A stretch of DNA of 64,000 bases, from the NCBI RefSeq assembly GCF_000147075.1, contig NC_014484.1, positions 1,381,501-1,445,500 of the forward strand, given 5' to 3'. Each line of letters opens with the position of its first letter. Position 1 is the first letter of the stretch. Below the pieces are notes generated by a model, which ran no database searches, was not told the DNA's origin, and worked only from the letters and a program-made list of their open reading frames with translations. A program made the translations under genes and the position numbers. This DNA is from Spirochaeta thermophila DSM 6192. GTDB lineage: Bacteria > Spirochaetota > Spirochaetia > Winmispirales > Winmispiraceae. This document shows positions 34,330-40,349 of this stretch, piece after piece.

Positions 34330-35859
34330 CTAGCGGGCGTACTCGACCACCCGGGTCTCCCGGATGATGGTCACTTTGATCCGCCCGGGATACCGGAGAT
34401 CCTCCTCGATCTTCCGGGCTATCTCCCGGGCGAGCTCCCGCGCCCCGGCGTCGTCGACCAGGTCGTTGTTGACCATGATCCTGATCTCCCTGCCCGCCTG
34501 GATCGCGAAGGCCTTGTCCACTCCGGAGAACCCTTCCGCGATCTTCTCGAGCTGCTCGAGGCGCTTGATGTAGTTCTCGAGCGACTCCCTTCTCGCCCCC
34601 GGTCTCGAGGCGGAGATGGCGTCGGCGATCTGGACGATCACTGACTCGGGACACGTGTGCGGCACATCACCGTGATGCGCGGCGATGCAGTTGATCACCC
34701 TGCTGTCCTCACCCATGCGCTTGGCGAGCTCTATCCCGAGCTCGATGTGCGTGCTGTCGTCATCGGACTCGATCGCCTTGCCGATGTCGTGGAGGAGCGC
34801 CCCCCGTTTGGCGATCATGGGGTCACCTCCCACCTCGGCGGCGATCATGCCGGCGAGTACGGCCACCTCTTTGGTATGGGCGAGGACGTTCTGGCCGTAG
34901 CTCGTACGATACTTGAGGCGTCCCAGGGCCTGGACCGCCTCAGGGGGAAAATCGTGTATCCCCAGCTCGAACAGCACCTTCTCTCCTTCCTCGTAGATGG
35001 TTTGGCTCAGCTCTTTGGTCACTTTGTGGACAACTTCCTCGATACGGGCGGGATGGATCCGTCCGTCCGCGATGAGGCGCTCCAGAGAGATGCGGGCGAT
35101 CTCCTTTCTCACCGGGTCGAAGCACGAGAGCACCACCGCCTCGGGCGTATCGTCGATGATGATATCCACGCCCGTGAGGGTCTCGAGGGTCCGGATGTTC
35201 CGTCCCTCCCGGCCGATGATCCTCCCCTTCATCTCATCGTTGGGAAGGCTCACCGTGGTCACGGTGACCTCGGCCGTCACATCGGTGGCGATGCGTTGCA
35301 TGGTGCTCACCAACACGTCACGCGCCTTGCGCTCCGCCGTGGCCCTGGCCTCCTCCTCGATCTTGTTCACGAGGATCTGGGCATCCCGCTTCGCCTCTTC
35401 CTCGAGCCGCGAGATGATGAGTGACCGGGCCTCTTCCCTGGTCAGTCCAGAAATCCGTTCCAGTTCGCTCTCGATCTCTTGTTCCCGTCGTCCAAGTTCC
35501 GTCTCTTTTTCCGCCAGCAACCTCTCTCGGTCCGCAAGGGCTTCGTTTCTCCGCTCCACCGCTGCCAGTTTTCGCTCGAGCGTCTCCTCCTTCTGCAGGA
35601 GACGCCGCTCAGTCCGCTGAAGCTCGGCCCGTCGTTCACGGAGTTCTTTCTCGAGCTGGAGCCGCTCCTTGTGGATCTGCTCCTGTGCCTCGAAAAGGAT
35701 CTCTTTCTTCCGTGCCTCAGCCTCTTTTACCGCCTCATCTTTTATTCTCTCAGCCCTCTGCTCCGCAGAGGTAAGCTGAAATCTGGCATACAGCCATCGA
35801 GCTGTCCACCCCAACGCCAAACCAAGAAGAGGAAGGGCAACTGAAAGAAGAACATTCAT
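34330..35859 (-). CDS. rny: Ribonuclease Y
   Basis: 509 residues. N-terminal membrane anchor ([20 protein letters not shown]), a long coiled coil (about residues 35-170), a KH domain ([15 protein letters not shown]) and an HD domain ([10 protein letters not shown], with TKEVAVLAG and AHHGDVPH). It starts mRNA decay at the membrane. GGAGGGAG precedes the ATG at 35859. The first 35 codons, promoter and leader belong to the duplicated block and occur again at 38461-38565, where they head a chimeric frame. This copy is intact. Confidence 0.97.
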
Positions 35860-35890
35860 CAGCTCCCTCCACTTTCTTGTCTAGACCCCT

Positions 35891-35919
35891 AGACTATGAA
35901 TATATTACAGAAAAGTCAA
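35891..35919 (-). promoter_or_regulatory. Candidate promoter of rny with overlapping palindromes
   Basis: TTGACT (35914-35919), 17 bp, TAGTCT (35891-35896) on the minus strand. A palindrome GTCTAG-accc-CTAGAC (35879-35894) overlaps the -10 and the expected start point, and GTGTCA-tcg-TGACAC (35927-35941) lies just upstream of the -35. Both look like regulator sites. The same arrangement recurs 2706 bases to the right. Confidence 0.5.
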
Positions 35920-36002
35920 TTATTCCGTGTCATCGTGACACAGAACCGCTTTTCCGTCGCACCTTCTAAACCAGACGGCATCCCCGCCGGTTACACCACC
36001 AC

Positions 36003-36031
36003 TTGCAGGATCCCCCGGGCGGACCTATACT
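36003..36031 (+). promoter_or_regulatory. Promoter of maf (left copy), predicted leaderless
   Basis: TTGCAG (36003-36008), 17 bp, TATACT (36026-36031). The ATG starts seven bases after the -10 hexamer and has no Shine-Dalgarno sequence. Confidence 0.7.
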
Positions 36032-36038
36032 CGCACAC

Positions 36039-36644
36039 ATGGCACCCCCACCTCCCATCCTCCTCGCCTCCCGATCCCCGCGCAGGGCCTCGCTCCTCAG
36101 CTCCGCGGGCATCCCCTTCGTCCAGTGGGCGCCGGAGTATCGCGAAACCCTCCCGCCGCAGGGAACACCCGAGGAACGCATCGCGGCCCTCGCCCGCGAC
36201 AAACTCCGGCAGGCACTCCAGGCCGATCCCCCCACCCCCAGCGAGTGGGTCCTCACCGCCGACACCGCCGTGGTAGTCGACGAACGCATCCTGGGGAAAC
36301 CCCGAAACGAGGCGGAAGCCCGCGCCATGCTCACCCTCCTCTCCGGCCGATCCCACACCATCCTCACAGCCCTCTCCCTCCACCACCGGGGCGGCCCCAC
36401 GCTCACGCGTACCGCCCTCACCACGGTGTGGTGGGCGCCGCTCACCGAGGAGGAGATCGACCTTTATCTCGCCTCCCGCGAGTGGCAGGACGCCGCCGGC
36501 GCCTACCGCATACAGGAACGCGGCGGCCTCTTCATCACCCGCATCGAGGGCTCCTACTCCAACGTGGTGGGCTTGCCAATCCATCTCCTTTATGGCATGC
36601 TCAAGGAAAGCGGGTACCCCTACCCGCGCATCTTCCGCCCGTAG
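36039..36644 (+). CDS. maf: Maf-like nucleoside triphosphate pyrophosphatase, left copy
   Basis: 201 residues. The family opening ILLASRSPRRASLLSSAGIPF, the catalytic ADTAVVVDERILGKP and the ending GLPIHLLYGML are intact. Maf/YhdE enzymes hydrolyse dTTP, UTP or modified nucleotides and are tied to division arrest. The ATG at 36039 fits the family start. The sequence is complete and differs from the right copy by one codon (Arg for His near the C-terminus). It is followed 48 bases later by a truncated rpsB start. Confidence 0.92.
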   Translation: MAPPPPILLASRSPRRASLLSSAGIPFVQWAPEYRETLPPQGTPEERIAALARDKLRQALQADPPTPSEWVLTADTAVVVDERILGKPRNEAEARAMLTLLSGRSHTILTALSLHHRGGPTLTRTALTTVWWAPLTEEEIDLYLASREWQDAAGAYRIQERGGLFITRIEGSYSNVVGLPIHLLYGMLKESGYPYPRIFRP

Positions 36645-36692
36645 GGCGAGAAACAGAGAAGGAGACCCCACGGGGTCATCGAGGAGGTTCCC

Positions 36693-36767
36693 TTGGCAGT
36701 TGTGACCATGAAGAACCTGCTGGAATCCGGTGTGCACTTCGGGCACCAGAAACGCAGAATGAGATGA
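36693..36767 (+). pseudogene. rpsB: Truncated 5' end of rpsB
   Basis: The ribosome binding site, TTG start and first 21-22 codons of rpsB are identical to 39399-39463, then the frame leaves into insert DNA and meets TGA after two more codons. The product would be a 24-residue peptide. It marks the left junction of the inserted segment. Confidence 0.9.
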
Positions 36768-36778
36768 CCGGCATTCTG
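36755..36778. repeat. Inverted repeat spanning the left insert junction
   Basis: CAGAATG (36755-36761) and CATTCTG (36772-36778) form a 7-bp perfect inverted repeat. Its first three bases belong to the duplicated block and the rest to the insert. Confidence 0.7.
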
Positions 36779-36874
36779 AAAGGATTGGGCTTTATTTATA
36801 AAAGATATCTATGGCAGAGAGAGCCAGAAAAAAGAGGTGATACCATCAAAGTGAGGATAAGGAGGATGGAATGA
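36764..36874 (+). CDS. Possible small frame upstream of the insert cargo gene
   Basis: A 36-residue frame rich in Arg and Lys ends in an overlap with the start of the next gene (ATGATGA). It has no ribosome binding site and begins six bases inside the insert, so it may be the tail of a longer truncated gene or not coding at all. Confidence 0.25.
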   Translation: MTGILKGLGFIYKRYLWQREPEKRGDTIKVRIRRME

Positions 36875-37656
36875 TGAAACTTACTATTATGGGTATTATG
36901 ATAATAACAGTGGCGGGTTTACCACTATATTCACAAAGCATAACACTGGGTACCAGATATATACAAGGGATGGCTACAGACGTGGAGTTTAGAGATAATA
37001 ATAAAGTGGCTTTTATTGATGTAGAAGGGAAAGAAGAAGTATACAGGTATGAAATTGAATATGTGCATAAGATTCCATTTATGCGAATATATAAAGGTAA
37101 AAAGGTAGAAGAATACCTTGTTTTGTATAATGAAGATATGATGATTTTGTACACAAAAGAAGAAAATTCTCCCTATGATATATGGATAAAAAGCTTTAAA
37201 ACATGGAATCAGATGGGCTTTTTTCCACCATCAGACATTATTTTTGCAAGTAGTGAATTAAAAGAAGGGGATATTACCTATACAGTTAAGAATCTTAGAA
37301 GCATAGACCTTGAGACTCCTTGGGTAGAAGGTGCTAAGGGGAATGGAATAGGAGAGTCAATTACAATAAAAAATACAGTTTTAGATAGTCTTATACTATT
37401 TTCTGGCTATCTTTCGTATAAGAAGCCCTATTTATATACCCAGAATGCAAGACCCAAGAAGATACGAGTTGCTTGCAAGGAAATCGGATTTGAGAAGGTG
37501 TTTGATGTAGCAGATACGCCAAATCCCCAGGTGTTAGAATTTGGTAGACTGATTGATATGAAGGATATTACAATTACCATTATAGACGTATACCCAGGAA
37601 CAAAATATGAGGACATGTGTATACATGCGATATGGGGAAGAATGGTAACAAAGTAA
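36871..37656 (+). CDS. Secreted protein resembling spirochaete discoidin/NADase-type glycan-binding proteins
   Basis: 261 residues, strongly AT-rich codons (ATA, AAA, GAA, TTT) unlike every neighbour. A signal peptide (LTIMGIMIITVAGLPLYSQS) directs export. The C-terminal third has YTQNARPKKIRVACKEIGFE followed by DTPNPQVLEFGRLIDMKDITIT, a pattern known from secreted spirochaete proteins with a galactose-binding-like beta sandwich. The N-terminal part (WIKSFKTWNQMGFFPPSDIIF) was not recognised. AAGGAGG is five bases before the ATG. It is the only full gene of the insert; function unknown. Confidence 0.7.
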   Translation: MMKLTIMGIMIITVAGLPLYSQSITLGTRYIQGMATDVEFRDNNKVAFIDVEGKEEVYRYEIEYVHKIPFMRIYKGKKVEEYLVLYNEDMMILYTKEENSPYDIWIKSFKTWNQMGFFPPSDIIFASSELKEGDITYTVKNLRSIDLETPWVEGAKGNGIGESITIKNTVLDSLILFSGYLSYKKPYLYTQNARPKKIRVACKEIGFEKVFDVADTPNPQVLEFGRLIDMKDITITIIDVYPGTKYEDMCIHAIWGRMVTK

Positions 37657-38199
37657 CGAATGCACCTTAGAACAAGCAAAGTAGGCTGCCCCCCCTCCCG
37701 CCTGTTTGCCCTGTGGCCACTGCTGGTGCGTGGGGGTGCGCTGGCTTCCCTTTCTGGCTCTAGCCTTTTAACATGACTTAAAAGAGGTAGTGCAGGTAGG
37801 GAACAGAAAAACTTTTTCTGTTTCCCCCAAACCCGGGAAAGAAGAAAAAGGAGGCCAGCAAGTACAGGGATGTACTGCTGGAAAGCCTGTACAGGGAAGT
37901 ACAGGCTTAGTGGTTAAGGGGGCTTTTAAAAGCTAAGTTAGAGGCAAAAAGCCCTGTTTAAAGTGGCCAGGGTTTGGGGCGAGGCAAATTGGTTAAAGTA
38001 GGGGCACTTCGTAATAATGAGCGAATTATAGGAAGTGCCCCGATTGGTTTATAGAGGCAGAAAATAAGCTTTTTAAGCTGTAAGCCTGCAGCTGGTGGCT
38101 TTTATGGAAAATAGAGGCTTTAACCAATTTGCCCGCTACCTGCACAGGTTAAGGAGAAGGCCTTGGCTGGGTTAGCGGCGGTGCTGGTGGCCAGCAGGG
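37657..38199. other. Hairpin-dense non-coding stretch of the insert
   Basis: No convincing gene in about 540 bases. Clear inverted repeats in order: CTTTTAA/TTAAAAG (37765-37784); GGGAACAGAAAAA facing TTTTTCTGTTTCCC with one bulge (37798-37825, terminator-like); AGTACA/TGTACT (37862-37877); GCCTGTAC/GTACAGGC (37886-37907); palindrome GCTTTTAAAAGC (37922-37933); and the large nested structure at 37983-38133. Such density suggests a structured RNA or a folded DNA recombination or replication site. The 3' ends of both flanking insert genes point into it. Confidence 0.6.
37983..38133. repeat. 151-base nested inverted-repeat structure
   Basis: GGCAAATTGGTTAAAG (37983-37998) is perfectly complementary to 38118-38133. 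Inside are GGGGCACTTC (38001-38010) / GAAGTGCCCC (38032-38041) with an inner ATAAT/ATTAT pairing, AGCTT/AAGCT, and AAGCC/GGCTT. One long closing helix around three hairpins is the layout of a multi-branch structured RNA or a cruciform-type DNA site. No known family was recognised. Confidence 0.6.
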
Positions 38200-38565
38200 T
38201 TATTTTTGGGGGGATTTTTTGTTAGTGCTTTTTTCAAGTTCTAATTGGTTTTTTCTAAGCATTTTATTTAACATACGATATAAATCTGCTCTATCATTTG
38301 CTGGTAGGGATAAAATATCTTTTAGTTTCTTTAAGCTTCTAGTATCAAATTTATAAATATCAATATCAGAGTTGGATTGGTTATTATTATCTTCTAATAA
38401 ATCAGAGACTTTTACATTTAAAGCTTTGGCAATAATTTTTATTTTGTTTAATGGTGGTAGCCTCTGCTCCGCAGAGGTAAGCTGAAATCTGGCATACAGC
38501 CATCGAGCTGTCCACCCCAACGCCAAACCAAGAAGAGGAAGGGCAACTGAAAGAAGAACATTCAT
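38200..38565 (-). CDS. Chimeric frame: RNase Y membrane anchor fused to the C-terminal part of an XRE-type regulator
   Basis: 121 residues. Residues 1-35 are identical to the RNase Y N-terminus including its membrane helix, because this is the duplicated block. At residue 36 the frame passes uninterrupted into insert DNA: LPPLNKIKIIAKALNVKVSDLL is typical of the last helices of a lambda-repressor-like HTH, followed by DTRSLKKLKDILSLPANDRA and a Lys-rich tail. The recognition part of the HTH is missing. The duplicated rny promoter and ribosome binding site are in place, so expression as a membrane-anchored fragment is plausible. Alternatively it is a dead by-product of the insertion. Confidence 0.7.
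   Translation of the reverse strand: MNVLLSVALPLLGLALGWTARWLYARFQLTSAEQRLPPLNKIKIIAKALNVKVSDLLEDNNNQSNSDIDIYKFDTRSLKKLKDILSLPANDRADLYRMLNKMLRKNQLELEKSTNKKSPQK
38461..38477. repeat. Perfect inverted repeat at the right insert junction
   Basis: CCTCTGC-tcc-GCAGAGG is a 7-bp stem with a 3-base loop that starts on the first base of the duplicated block. The same sequence lies inside intact rny at 35755-35771. Confidence 0.8.
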
Positions 38566-38708
38566 CAGCTCCCTCCACTTTCTTGTCTAGACCCCTAGAC
38601 TATGAATATATTACAGAAAAGTCAATTATTCCGTGTCATCGTGACACAGAACCGCTTTTCCGTCGCACCTTCTAAACCAGACGGCATCCCCGCCGGTTAC
38701 ACCACCAC

Positions 38709-38737
38709 TTGCAGGATCCCCCGGGCGGACCTATACT
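38709..38737 (+). promoter_or_regulatory. Promoter of maf (right copy), predicted leaderless
   Basis: Duplicate of the left-copy element: TTGCAG (38709-38714), 17 bp, TATACT (38732-38737), seven bases before the ATG. It may now drive maf, rpsB and tsf on this side of the insert. Confidence 0.7.
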
Positions 38738-38744
38738 CGCACAC

Positions 38745-39350
38745 ATGGCACCCCCACCTCCCATCCTCCTCGCCTCCCGATCCCCGCGCAGGGCCTCGCT
38801 CCTCAGCTCCGCGGGCATCCCCTTCGTCCAGTGGGCGCCGGAGTATCGCGAAACCCTCCCGCCGCAGGGAACACCCGAGGAACGCATCGCGGCCCTCGCC
38901 CGCGACAAACTCCGGCAGGCACTCCAGGCCGATCCCCCCACCCCCAGCGAGTGGGTCCTCACCGCCGACACCGCCGTGGTAGTCGACGAACGCATCCTGG
39001 GGAAACCCCGAAACGAGGCGGAAGCCCGCGCCATGCTCACCCTCCTCTCCGGCCGATCCCACACCATCCTCACAGCCCTCTCCCTCCACCACCGGGGCGG
39101 CCCCACGCTCACGCGTACCGCCCTCACCACGGTGTGGTGGGCGCCGCTCACCGAGGAGGAGATCGACCTTTATCTCGCCTCCCGCGAGTGGCAGGACGCC
39201 GCCGGCGCCTACCGCATACAGGAACGCGGCGGCCTCTTCATCACCCGCATCGAGGGCTCCTACTCCAACGTGGTGGGCTTGCCAATCCATCTCCTTTATG
39301 GCATGCTCAAGGAAAGCGGGTACCCCTACCCGCACATCTTCCGCCCGTAG
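38745..39350 (+). CDS. maf: Maf-like nucleoside triphosphate pyrophosphatase, right copy
   Basis: 201 residues, identical to the left copy except His instead of Arg four residues from the C-terminus (YPYPHIFRP versus YPYPRIFRP). Catalytic motifs SRSPRR and ADTAVVVDE are unchanged. It lies 48 bases before rpsB, the native arrangement. Two functional maf genes may raise gene dosage. Confidence 0.92.
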   Translation: MAPPPPILLASRSPRRASLLSSAGIPFVQWAPEYRETLPPQGTPEERIAALARDKLRQALQADPPTPSEWVLTADTAVVVDERILGKPRNEAEARAMLTLLSGRSHTILTALSLHHRGGPTLTRTALTTVWWAPLTEEEIDLYLASREWQDAAGAYRIQERGGLFITRIEGSYSNVVGLPIHLLYGMLKESGYPYPHIFRP

Positions 39351-39398
39351 GGCGAGAAACAGAGAAGGAGACCCCACGGGGTCATCGAGGAGGTTCCC

Positions 39399-40349
39399 TT
39401 GGCAGTTGTGACCATGAAGAACCTGCTGGAATCCGGTGTGCACTTCGGGCACCAGAAACGCAGGTGGGATCCCCGTATGAAGAAGTACATCTTCGCCGAA
39501 CGGAACGGGATCCACATCATTGACCTTCAGAAGACCATCCAGGCCATCAAAGAGGCCTACGAGGTGGTGCGGAAGACCGTACTGTCCGGCAAGAGCGTGC
39601 TCTTCGTGGGCACCAAACGCCAGGCGCAGGCGGCCATCCAACGCGAAGCCGAACGGTGCGGCATGTTCTACGTGAACCACCGGTGGCTCGGCGGCACCCT
39701 CACCAACTTCGAGACCATCAAGAAGTCCATCCTCAGGCTCAAGAAACTGGAGAAGATGGAGGTGGACGGCACCTTCGCCACCATGTCCAAGAAAGAGGTC
39801 TCCCGTCTCATGAAAGAGAAGGCCCGGCTTCAGCGGAATCTGGGCGGTATCAAGGAGATGAAGGAGCTCCCCGGCGTGGTCTTCATCATCGACACCAAGC
39901 ACGAGGCCATCGCCGTGGCCGAGGCCAAGAAGCTCGGGATCCCCATCATCGGCGTGGTGGACACCAATTGTAACCCCGAGATCATCGATCATCCCATCCC
40001 CGGCAACGACGATGCCATTCGAGCCATCAACCTCTTCAGCAAGATCATCGCGGATGCGGTCATCGAGGCGGACAACGAGATGGGCCTCGAGGTCGTGGAA
40101 TCCCTCCAGGAGGAAGAGCCCATCGACGAGAGCCAGATAGAGACCGGCAAGGAAGAAGAAATCGCCGAGCTCAAGGTCTCGGTGGGTGCCCGTCTCGGCA
40201 AGGAAGACGAGGAGGAGGAAGAGGGGGTTCTCGCAGGCGATTACTCCGAGTACTCCCCGGAAGAGGAAGAAGAGAAAGCCACCGAACAGATCACCGAACT
40301 CGAATCGGACAAGTTCATAGGCGACGAAGACAAATATTACGAGGAGTGA
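39399..40349 (+). CDS. rpsB: 30S ribosomal protein S2
   Basis: 316 residues, longer than the usual 230-260 because of a Glu-rich C-terminal tail of about 70 residues (stretches such as EEEEEG and [11 protein letters not shown]). Core signatures: [34 protein letters not shown], and [13 protein letters not shown]. The start is TTG at 39399, five bases after GAGGAGG; the next ATG would drop only five residues. Followed by tsf after three bases. Confidence 0.96.

What the first reader, a model, noticed from the sequence alone, without database searches (positions are those of the whole stretch)
38200..38565. In-frame chimera of the RNase Y membrane anchor with an XRE regulator tail
The duplication places the rny promoter, ribosome binding site and first 35 codons exactly in frame with 86 codons resembling the C-terminal part of an XRE/lambda-type repressor. 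The result is a potentially expressed membrane-anchored regulator fragment. Its anchor could also pair with or interfere with genuine RNase Y.
Basis: partly seen in the sequence, partly recalled or inferred. Interest (0 to 1): 0.75.

Follow-up and report, generated by a model that had tools for sequence, protein, structure and literature searches.

The report
Accidental gene fusion beside captured DNA
A 1.7-kb piece of foreign DNA was inserted next to two essential bacterial genes together with a 1-kb copy of the insertion site, and at one seam the start of a membrane RNA-cutting enzyme was joined by chance, in frame, to the tail of a broken foreign repressor; the fusion is real but probably has no function.

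Summary
ORF 38200-38565(-) joins codons 1-35 of rny (RNase Y) in frame to 86 codons of an XRE/RstR-type repressor tail. NCBIfam finds both parts in the one protein: RNase Y at residues 1-41 and RstR at 33-108. Full-length relatives in other spirochaetes share 45-57% identity with the tail.

The ORF is the right-hand seam of an insertion-duplication. A 1703-bp low-GC insert (36758-38460) lies between two 1003-bp direct repeats (35755-36757 and 38461-39463; one mismatch). The repeat holds the rny start, maf and the rpsB start. The same-genus genome has one copy and no insert.

The insert is the 3' end of an Rhs-type effector gene, an intact secreted NADase_transloc-domain gene, about 540 bp of unplaced non-coding DNA, and the truncated repressor. 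This is the product expected from single-crossover integration of a circle carrying host plus foreign DNA. It keeps rny and maf-rpsB-tsf intact.

Residues 36-121 lack the first two thirds of the HTH, including the recognition helix. Only 35 RNase Y residues remain, almost none of the coiled coil. A DNA-binding regulator is effectively excluded, and interference with RNase Y is unlikely. The frame fit is a one-in-three accident. The more likely retained cargo is the secreted gene, perhaps an orphan Rhs immunity gene (inferred).

The parts
38200..38565 (-). Chimeric ORF, 121 aa: RNase Y residues 1-35 fused to an XRE/RstR-type repressor tail (86 aa)
38461..38565 (-). rny part of the chimera (35 codons, hydrophobic anchor at about residues 1-25)
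38200..38460 (-). Truncated XRE/RstR-like repressor gene: 3' part only, HTH helices 1-4 missing; 26% GC
35755..36757 (+). Left copy of the 1003-bp direct repeat (rny 5' end, rny-maf intergenic region, maf, rpsB 5' end)
   Evidence: single copy in the same-genus genome
38461..39463 (+). Right copy of the 1003-bp direct repeat; one mismatch to the left copy
36758..38460 (.). 1703-bp foreign insert between the repeats (35%, 50% and 26% GC in its three parts; window mean 61%)
34330..35859 (-). Intact rny (RNase Y, 509 aa)
36003..36644 (+). maf, copy 1 (complete)
36693..36767 (+). Truncated rpsB start (24 codons) ended by a stop just inside the insert
36758..36874 (+). Last 38 codons of an Rhs-type C-terminal effector domain; upstream part missing
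   Evidence: 63% identity to the C-terminus of the Rhs-type ORF in L005
36871..37656 (+). Intact 261-aa secreted protein with NADase_transloc / NADase-type discoid domain; possible orphan immunity gene
37657..38199 (.). Non-coding part of the insert, 50% GC, with a 16-nt perfect inverted repeat at 37983/38118; origin not found
38709..39350 (+). maf, copy 2 (complete)
39399..40349 (+). Intact rpsB, followed by tsf

Best explanation
The chimera is an accidental seam product of an insertion-duplication. A host fragment of about 1 kb (rny 5' end, maf, rpsB 5' end) became joined end to end with about 1.7 kb of foreign DNA, most simply as a circle. It entered the chromosome by one homologous crossover, giving rny-maf-rpsB' | foreign | rny'-maf-rpsB. 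Both essential transcription units stayed intact. At the right seam the duplicated rny start runs by a one-in-three chance into the natural frame of a truncated XRE/RstR-type repressor. If translated, the product would be a short membrane-anchored peptide without a DNA-binding motif and probably without function. Shown here: the structure, the empty site in the sister genome, the identities of the foreign genes, and the loss of the HTH. Inferred: the circle and crossover route, the lack of function, and retention because of (or neutral to) the secreted NADase_transloc gene.
For: 1003-bp perfect-but-one repeat flanking a foreign low-GC segment. Same-genus genome with one copy and no insert. The copies differ at 1 of 1003 positions while the sister differs at 19-20, so the event is recent or the copies are kept alike. 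Both ends of the insert are truncated genes: an Rhs-type C-terminus and a repressor tail. The missing repressor 5' part is not at the other end of the insert, so the foreign DNA was a fragment and not an element that integrated at an att site inside this gene (sequence). No terminal repeats or recombinase gene in the insert. Experimental precedent: in E. coli, integrations of foreign DNA flanked by a 109-950-bp duplication of the homologous locus were traced to single crossover with a circular, partly deleted molecule (PMC3240628). HTH loss.
Against: A pre-joined circle is not observed. Joining two sister-chromosome ends with a foreign filler would leave the same structure. No expression data exist for the ORF. 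The donor was not identified, and the 37657-38199 segment matched nothing outside this genome, so the insert may itself be composite.
Confidence: 0.8

Rival explanations
1. The insert was retained because it brought an orphan immunity gene: the intact 261-aa secreted NADase_transloc protein sits directly behind the end of an Rhs-type toxin gene and is now downstream of the duplicated maf-rpsB' start, so host transcription could drive it. The chimera is only a by-product.
For: Rhs immunity genes lie directly downstream of the toxin tip, and orphan ones protect against competitors (PMC10539506). The same gene order occurs in L005 (68% identity). The gene is intact with its own ribosome-binding site while both neighbours are truncated. 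This strain has further Rhs loci with orphan tips and its sister has none.
Against: NADase_transloc proteins elsewhere (Treponema MAGs and others) show no Rhs motif nearby, so the domain is not immunity-specific. No toxin test. Expression unknown.
Confidence: 0.3
2. The chimera is a functional membrane-anchored protein that titrates or modulates RNase Y or a repressor partner.
For: Same start codon, Shine-Dalgarno and upstream region as rny; one hydrophobic segment; the repressor C-terminal helices are well conserved among relatives and could self-associate.
Against: HTH destroyed. Only 35 RNase Y residues, almost none of the dimerising coiled coil (PMC9775385). Single occurrence, absent from the sister. 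No full-length partner repressor of this kind elsewhere in this genome. The model is low confidence (mean pLDDT 61, only the tail helices at 70-84; 4-sequence alignment).
Confidence: 0.06
3. Tandem duplication by end-joining of two broken sister chromosomes with a foreign filler fragment, without any homologous crossover.
For: Gives the same final structure; no clear microhomology at the two host/insert seams.
Against: No Ku gene found in this genome, so classical bacterial NHEJ is unlikely; needs two independent breaks plus a filler.
Confidence: 0.2
4. Assembly artefact or contamination in the genome record.
For: Unique to this strain; long near-identical repeat.
Against: Single-contig genome, 99.99% complete with 0.09% contamination by the tool's estimate. 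Both seams are internal. The insert's best relative is from the same bacterial family. The two copies differ at one base.
Confidence: 0.05

Closest known systems
Single-crossover (Campbell-type) insertion-duplication of host-plus-foreign DNA
   Same: Foreign DNA bounded by two direct copies of the host segment; both flanking genes kept intact; no terminal repeats or integrase
   Different: Natural rather than made in the laboratory; the circle and the crossover were not observed
Homology-facilitated illegitimate recombination (HFIR)
   Same: Capture of about 1 kb of foreign DNA anchored in homologous host DNA
   Different: HFIR typically deletes host DNA at the site and shows 3-10-bp microhomology (PMC3240628); here host DNA is duplicated, nothing is deleted, and no clear microhomology is seen
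RstR/DicA-type XRE repressors (NCBIfam NF041951, Pfam HTH_3)
   Same: C-terminal 86 residues including the last HTH helix and the conserved helical tail
   Different: HTH helices 1-4 missing and replaced by the RNase Y membrane anchor
RNase Y
   Same: First 35 residues, start site and upstream region
   Different: No coiled coil beyond the start, no KH or HD domain
Orphan Rhs immunity genes
   Same: Intact secreted gene behind a truncated Rhs-type tip
   Different: Inserted beside rny/rpsB, not in an Rhs locus; immunity function untested

Membership tests
XRE/RstR-type transcriptional repressor | Similarity of the C-terminal region to the family | tested here: met
XRE/RstR-type transcriptional repressor | Complete HTH with recognition helix | tested here: not met
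   Tail starts at about HTH_3 position 35 of 55 and covers RstR profile 38-105 of 108; no Pfam HTH hit for the chimera
RNase Y | N-terminal anchor | tested here: met
   identical residues 1-35; NCBIfam hit 1-41
RNase Y | Coiled coil, KH and HD domains | tested here: not met
Single-crossover insertion-duplication | Direct host repeats flanking foreign DNA, one copy completing each flanking gene | tested here: met
Single-crossover insertion-duplication | Empty site with one copy in a close relative | tested here: met
Single-crossover insertion-duplication | RecA-dependent crossover with a circular intermediate | not testable with these tools
HFIR | Deletion of host DNA coupled to the insertion | tested here: not met
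   duplication instead of deletion
Transposon / integrative element | Terminal repeats, recombinase gene or short target duplication | tested here: not met
Orphan Rhs immunity gene | Intact gene directly downstream of Rhs-type tip sequence | tested here: met
Orphan Rhs immunity gene | Neutralises the cognate toxin | not testable with these tools

The most novel reading that the evidence does not exclude
The fusion is translated and has become a membrane-tethered decoy that modulates RNase Y assembly or sequesters a related repressor: a new protein born from an insertion seam.
Probability: 0.04. Interest if true: 0.6.

Novelty: new member of a known kind. Interest (0 to 1): 0.25.

Why it matters
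It is a natural, recent and well-preserved example of foreign DNA entering a crowded essential locus by insertion-duplication. Such events create chimeric ORFs driven by housekeeping signals and can place captured genes behind host promoters. It also shows that a striking in-frame fusion needs no functional explanation. If the secreted gene is an orphan immunity gene, it would be a case of defence capture in a thermophilic spirochaete.

Tried and rejected
Circular-element hypothesis: the reverse complement of the insert's left end does not supply the missing repressor N-terminus, so the repressor was not split by integration of a circle opened at that point (sequence). Transposon or integrase: no terminal repeats, recombinase gene or short target duplication. 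Structured RNA: no Rfam match at E<=1 in 36600-38700. Donor search: apart from this genome, no match for the non-coding part or the whole insert, except the 75% nucleotide match of the Rhs/NADase_transloc part in one genome of the same family and short or weak coding matches; phylum, class and order samples, plasmids and phages were tried. Viral contigs gave no relative of the repressor tail. Pfam alone does not recognise the tail; NCBIfam and relatives do. The AlphaFold model was too weak to use for a fold search.

Full report
Identity of the sequence. The window is bases 1381501-1445500 of a single-contig genome of 2,472,645 bp; the same-genus genome G041 has 2,560,222 bp. From memory these sizes fit Spirochaeta (Winmispira) thermophila DSM 6192 and DSM 6578, both listed in the taxonomy. 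The name is not proven here.

The observation. ORF 38200-38565(-) encodes [35 protein letters not shown] (identical to residues 1-35 of the intact 509-aa RNase Y at 34330-35859) followed by 86 residues of another origin. The shared DNA is much longer than the rny part: 35755-36757 and 38461-39463 are identical over 1003 bp except for one base, at a spacing of 2706 bp. The repeat contains the rny start, the whole rny-maf intergenic region, maf and the first codons of rpsB. The start codon, the GGAGG upstream of it and any rny promoter in that region are therefore duplicated unchanged. The consensus scan does not show a sigma-70-like site on the minus strand there.

What the tail is. Residues 36-121 match three full-length spirochaete HTH_3 proteins at 45-57% identity. 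In a direct scan the chimera gives RNase Y at residues 1-41 and the RstR-family repressor at residues 33-108 against profile positions 38-105 of 108. PHROGs also names a transcriptional regulator. The part that is missing is the decisive one: by alignment the tail begins near HTH_3 position 35 of 55, so helices 1-4 and the recognition helix are absent. The AlphaFold model has low confidence (mean pLDDT 61). It shows a helix over residues 9-32, which includes part of the hydrophobic segment, and helices in the tail, with only the tail helices at 70-84.

What surrounds it. Between the repeats lie 1703 bp (36758-38460) of low-GC DNA in a 61%-GC window. From left to right they are as follows. First come the last 38 codons of an Rhs-type C-terminal effector domain, 63% identical to the end of an ORF in L005 that starts with the end of the Rhs core. 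Next is an intact 261-aa protein with a hydrophobic signal-like N-terminus and an NADase_transloc/NADase-type discoid domain, 68% identical to the gene in the same position in L005. Then come about 540 non-coding bp of 50% GC with a 16-nt perfect inverted repeat, for which no relative was found. Last is the truncated repressor gene. L005 belongs to a genome of the same family with about 37% GC in the stretches read.

How it arose. The same-genus genome has rny-maf-rpsB once, without the insert. The two copies differ at 1 of 1003 positions. The sister differs from copy 1 at 20 positions; at the one site where the copies differ, the sister agrees with copy 2. The event is thus recent relative to the strain split, or the copies have been kept alike by gene conversion. 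Each essential gene is completed by one copy: rny by the left, rpsB-tsf by the right. This is the signature of an insertion-duplication. A circle of host plus foreign DNA entering by one crossover explains it most simply. In E. coli, duplications of 109-950 bp flanking foreign DNA were traced to single crossover with a circular, partly deleted molecule (PMC3240628). Ordinary HFIR predicts a deletion, which is absent. End-joining of sister chromosomes with a filler would look the same, but no Ku gene was found. A ComEC-type competence domain is present, which is compatible with DNA uptake but very common.

Is the fusion meaningful? At this seam only three frames are possible, and the repressor's own frame is the one that stays open (86 codons against 3 and 18). 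The in-frame fusion therefore has a chance of about one in three, and its length is inherited from the repressor gene. The product could be made, but it has no DNA-binding motif. It shares only 35 residues with RNase Y, whereas the B. subtilis enzyme is thought to dimerise through the coiled coil of roughly residues 30-150 and the C-terminal region (PMC9775385). No related full-length repressor was found elsewhere in this genome. I consider the chimera a by-product (about 0.8).

What may matter more. The only intact gene wholly inside the insert is the secreted NADase_transloc protein. It lies where an Rhs immunity gene would lie and now follows the duplicated maf-rpsB' start. Orphan Rhs immunity genes can protect against competitors (PMC10539506). 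The strain carries other Rhs loci with orphan tips at 71-77 kb and 771-775 kb, and the sister genome carries none. An orphan-immunity role is plausible but untested (about 0.3), and the domain also occurs in contexts without detectable Rhs motifs.

Verdict.

Noticed in passing
window 38461-38477 and 35755-35771: The host side of the right seam starts exactly at a perfect 7-bp-arm, 3-nt-loop hairpin (CCTCTGC TCC GCAGAGG). Only 14 such hairpins occur in the 64-kb window, so the breakpoint may reflect breakage at a hairpin. This was noticed after the fact.
   Followed up: partly
window 37657-38199: Non-coding, 50%-GC stretch with a 16-nt perfect inverted repeat (37983-37998 / 38118-38133), unrelated to anything searched; possibly a repeat element of the unknown donor.
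   Followed up: partly
L073/L074 (G000 C1:71.1-76.7 kb) and L075 (C1:771.2-775.4 kb): Strain-specific Rhs loci: a 1701-aa and a 452-aa Rhs-type ORF plus orphan tip cassettes each preceded by repeated core DNA (about 89-98% identical). The same-genus genome has no Rhs core match.
   Followed up: partly
window 36628 / 39334: The only difference between the repeat copies changes R to H near the end of Maf. The sister agrees with copy 2, so copy 1 carries the derived base.
   Followed up: yes
L005 (G138 C11), L077, L078: Small contigs of a same-family genome that consist largely of Rhs-type tip cassettes; an L005 ORF has a tip that looks (by eye) like a peptidoglycan-acting domain.
   Followed up: no
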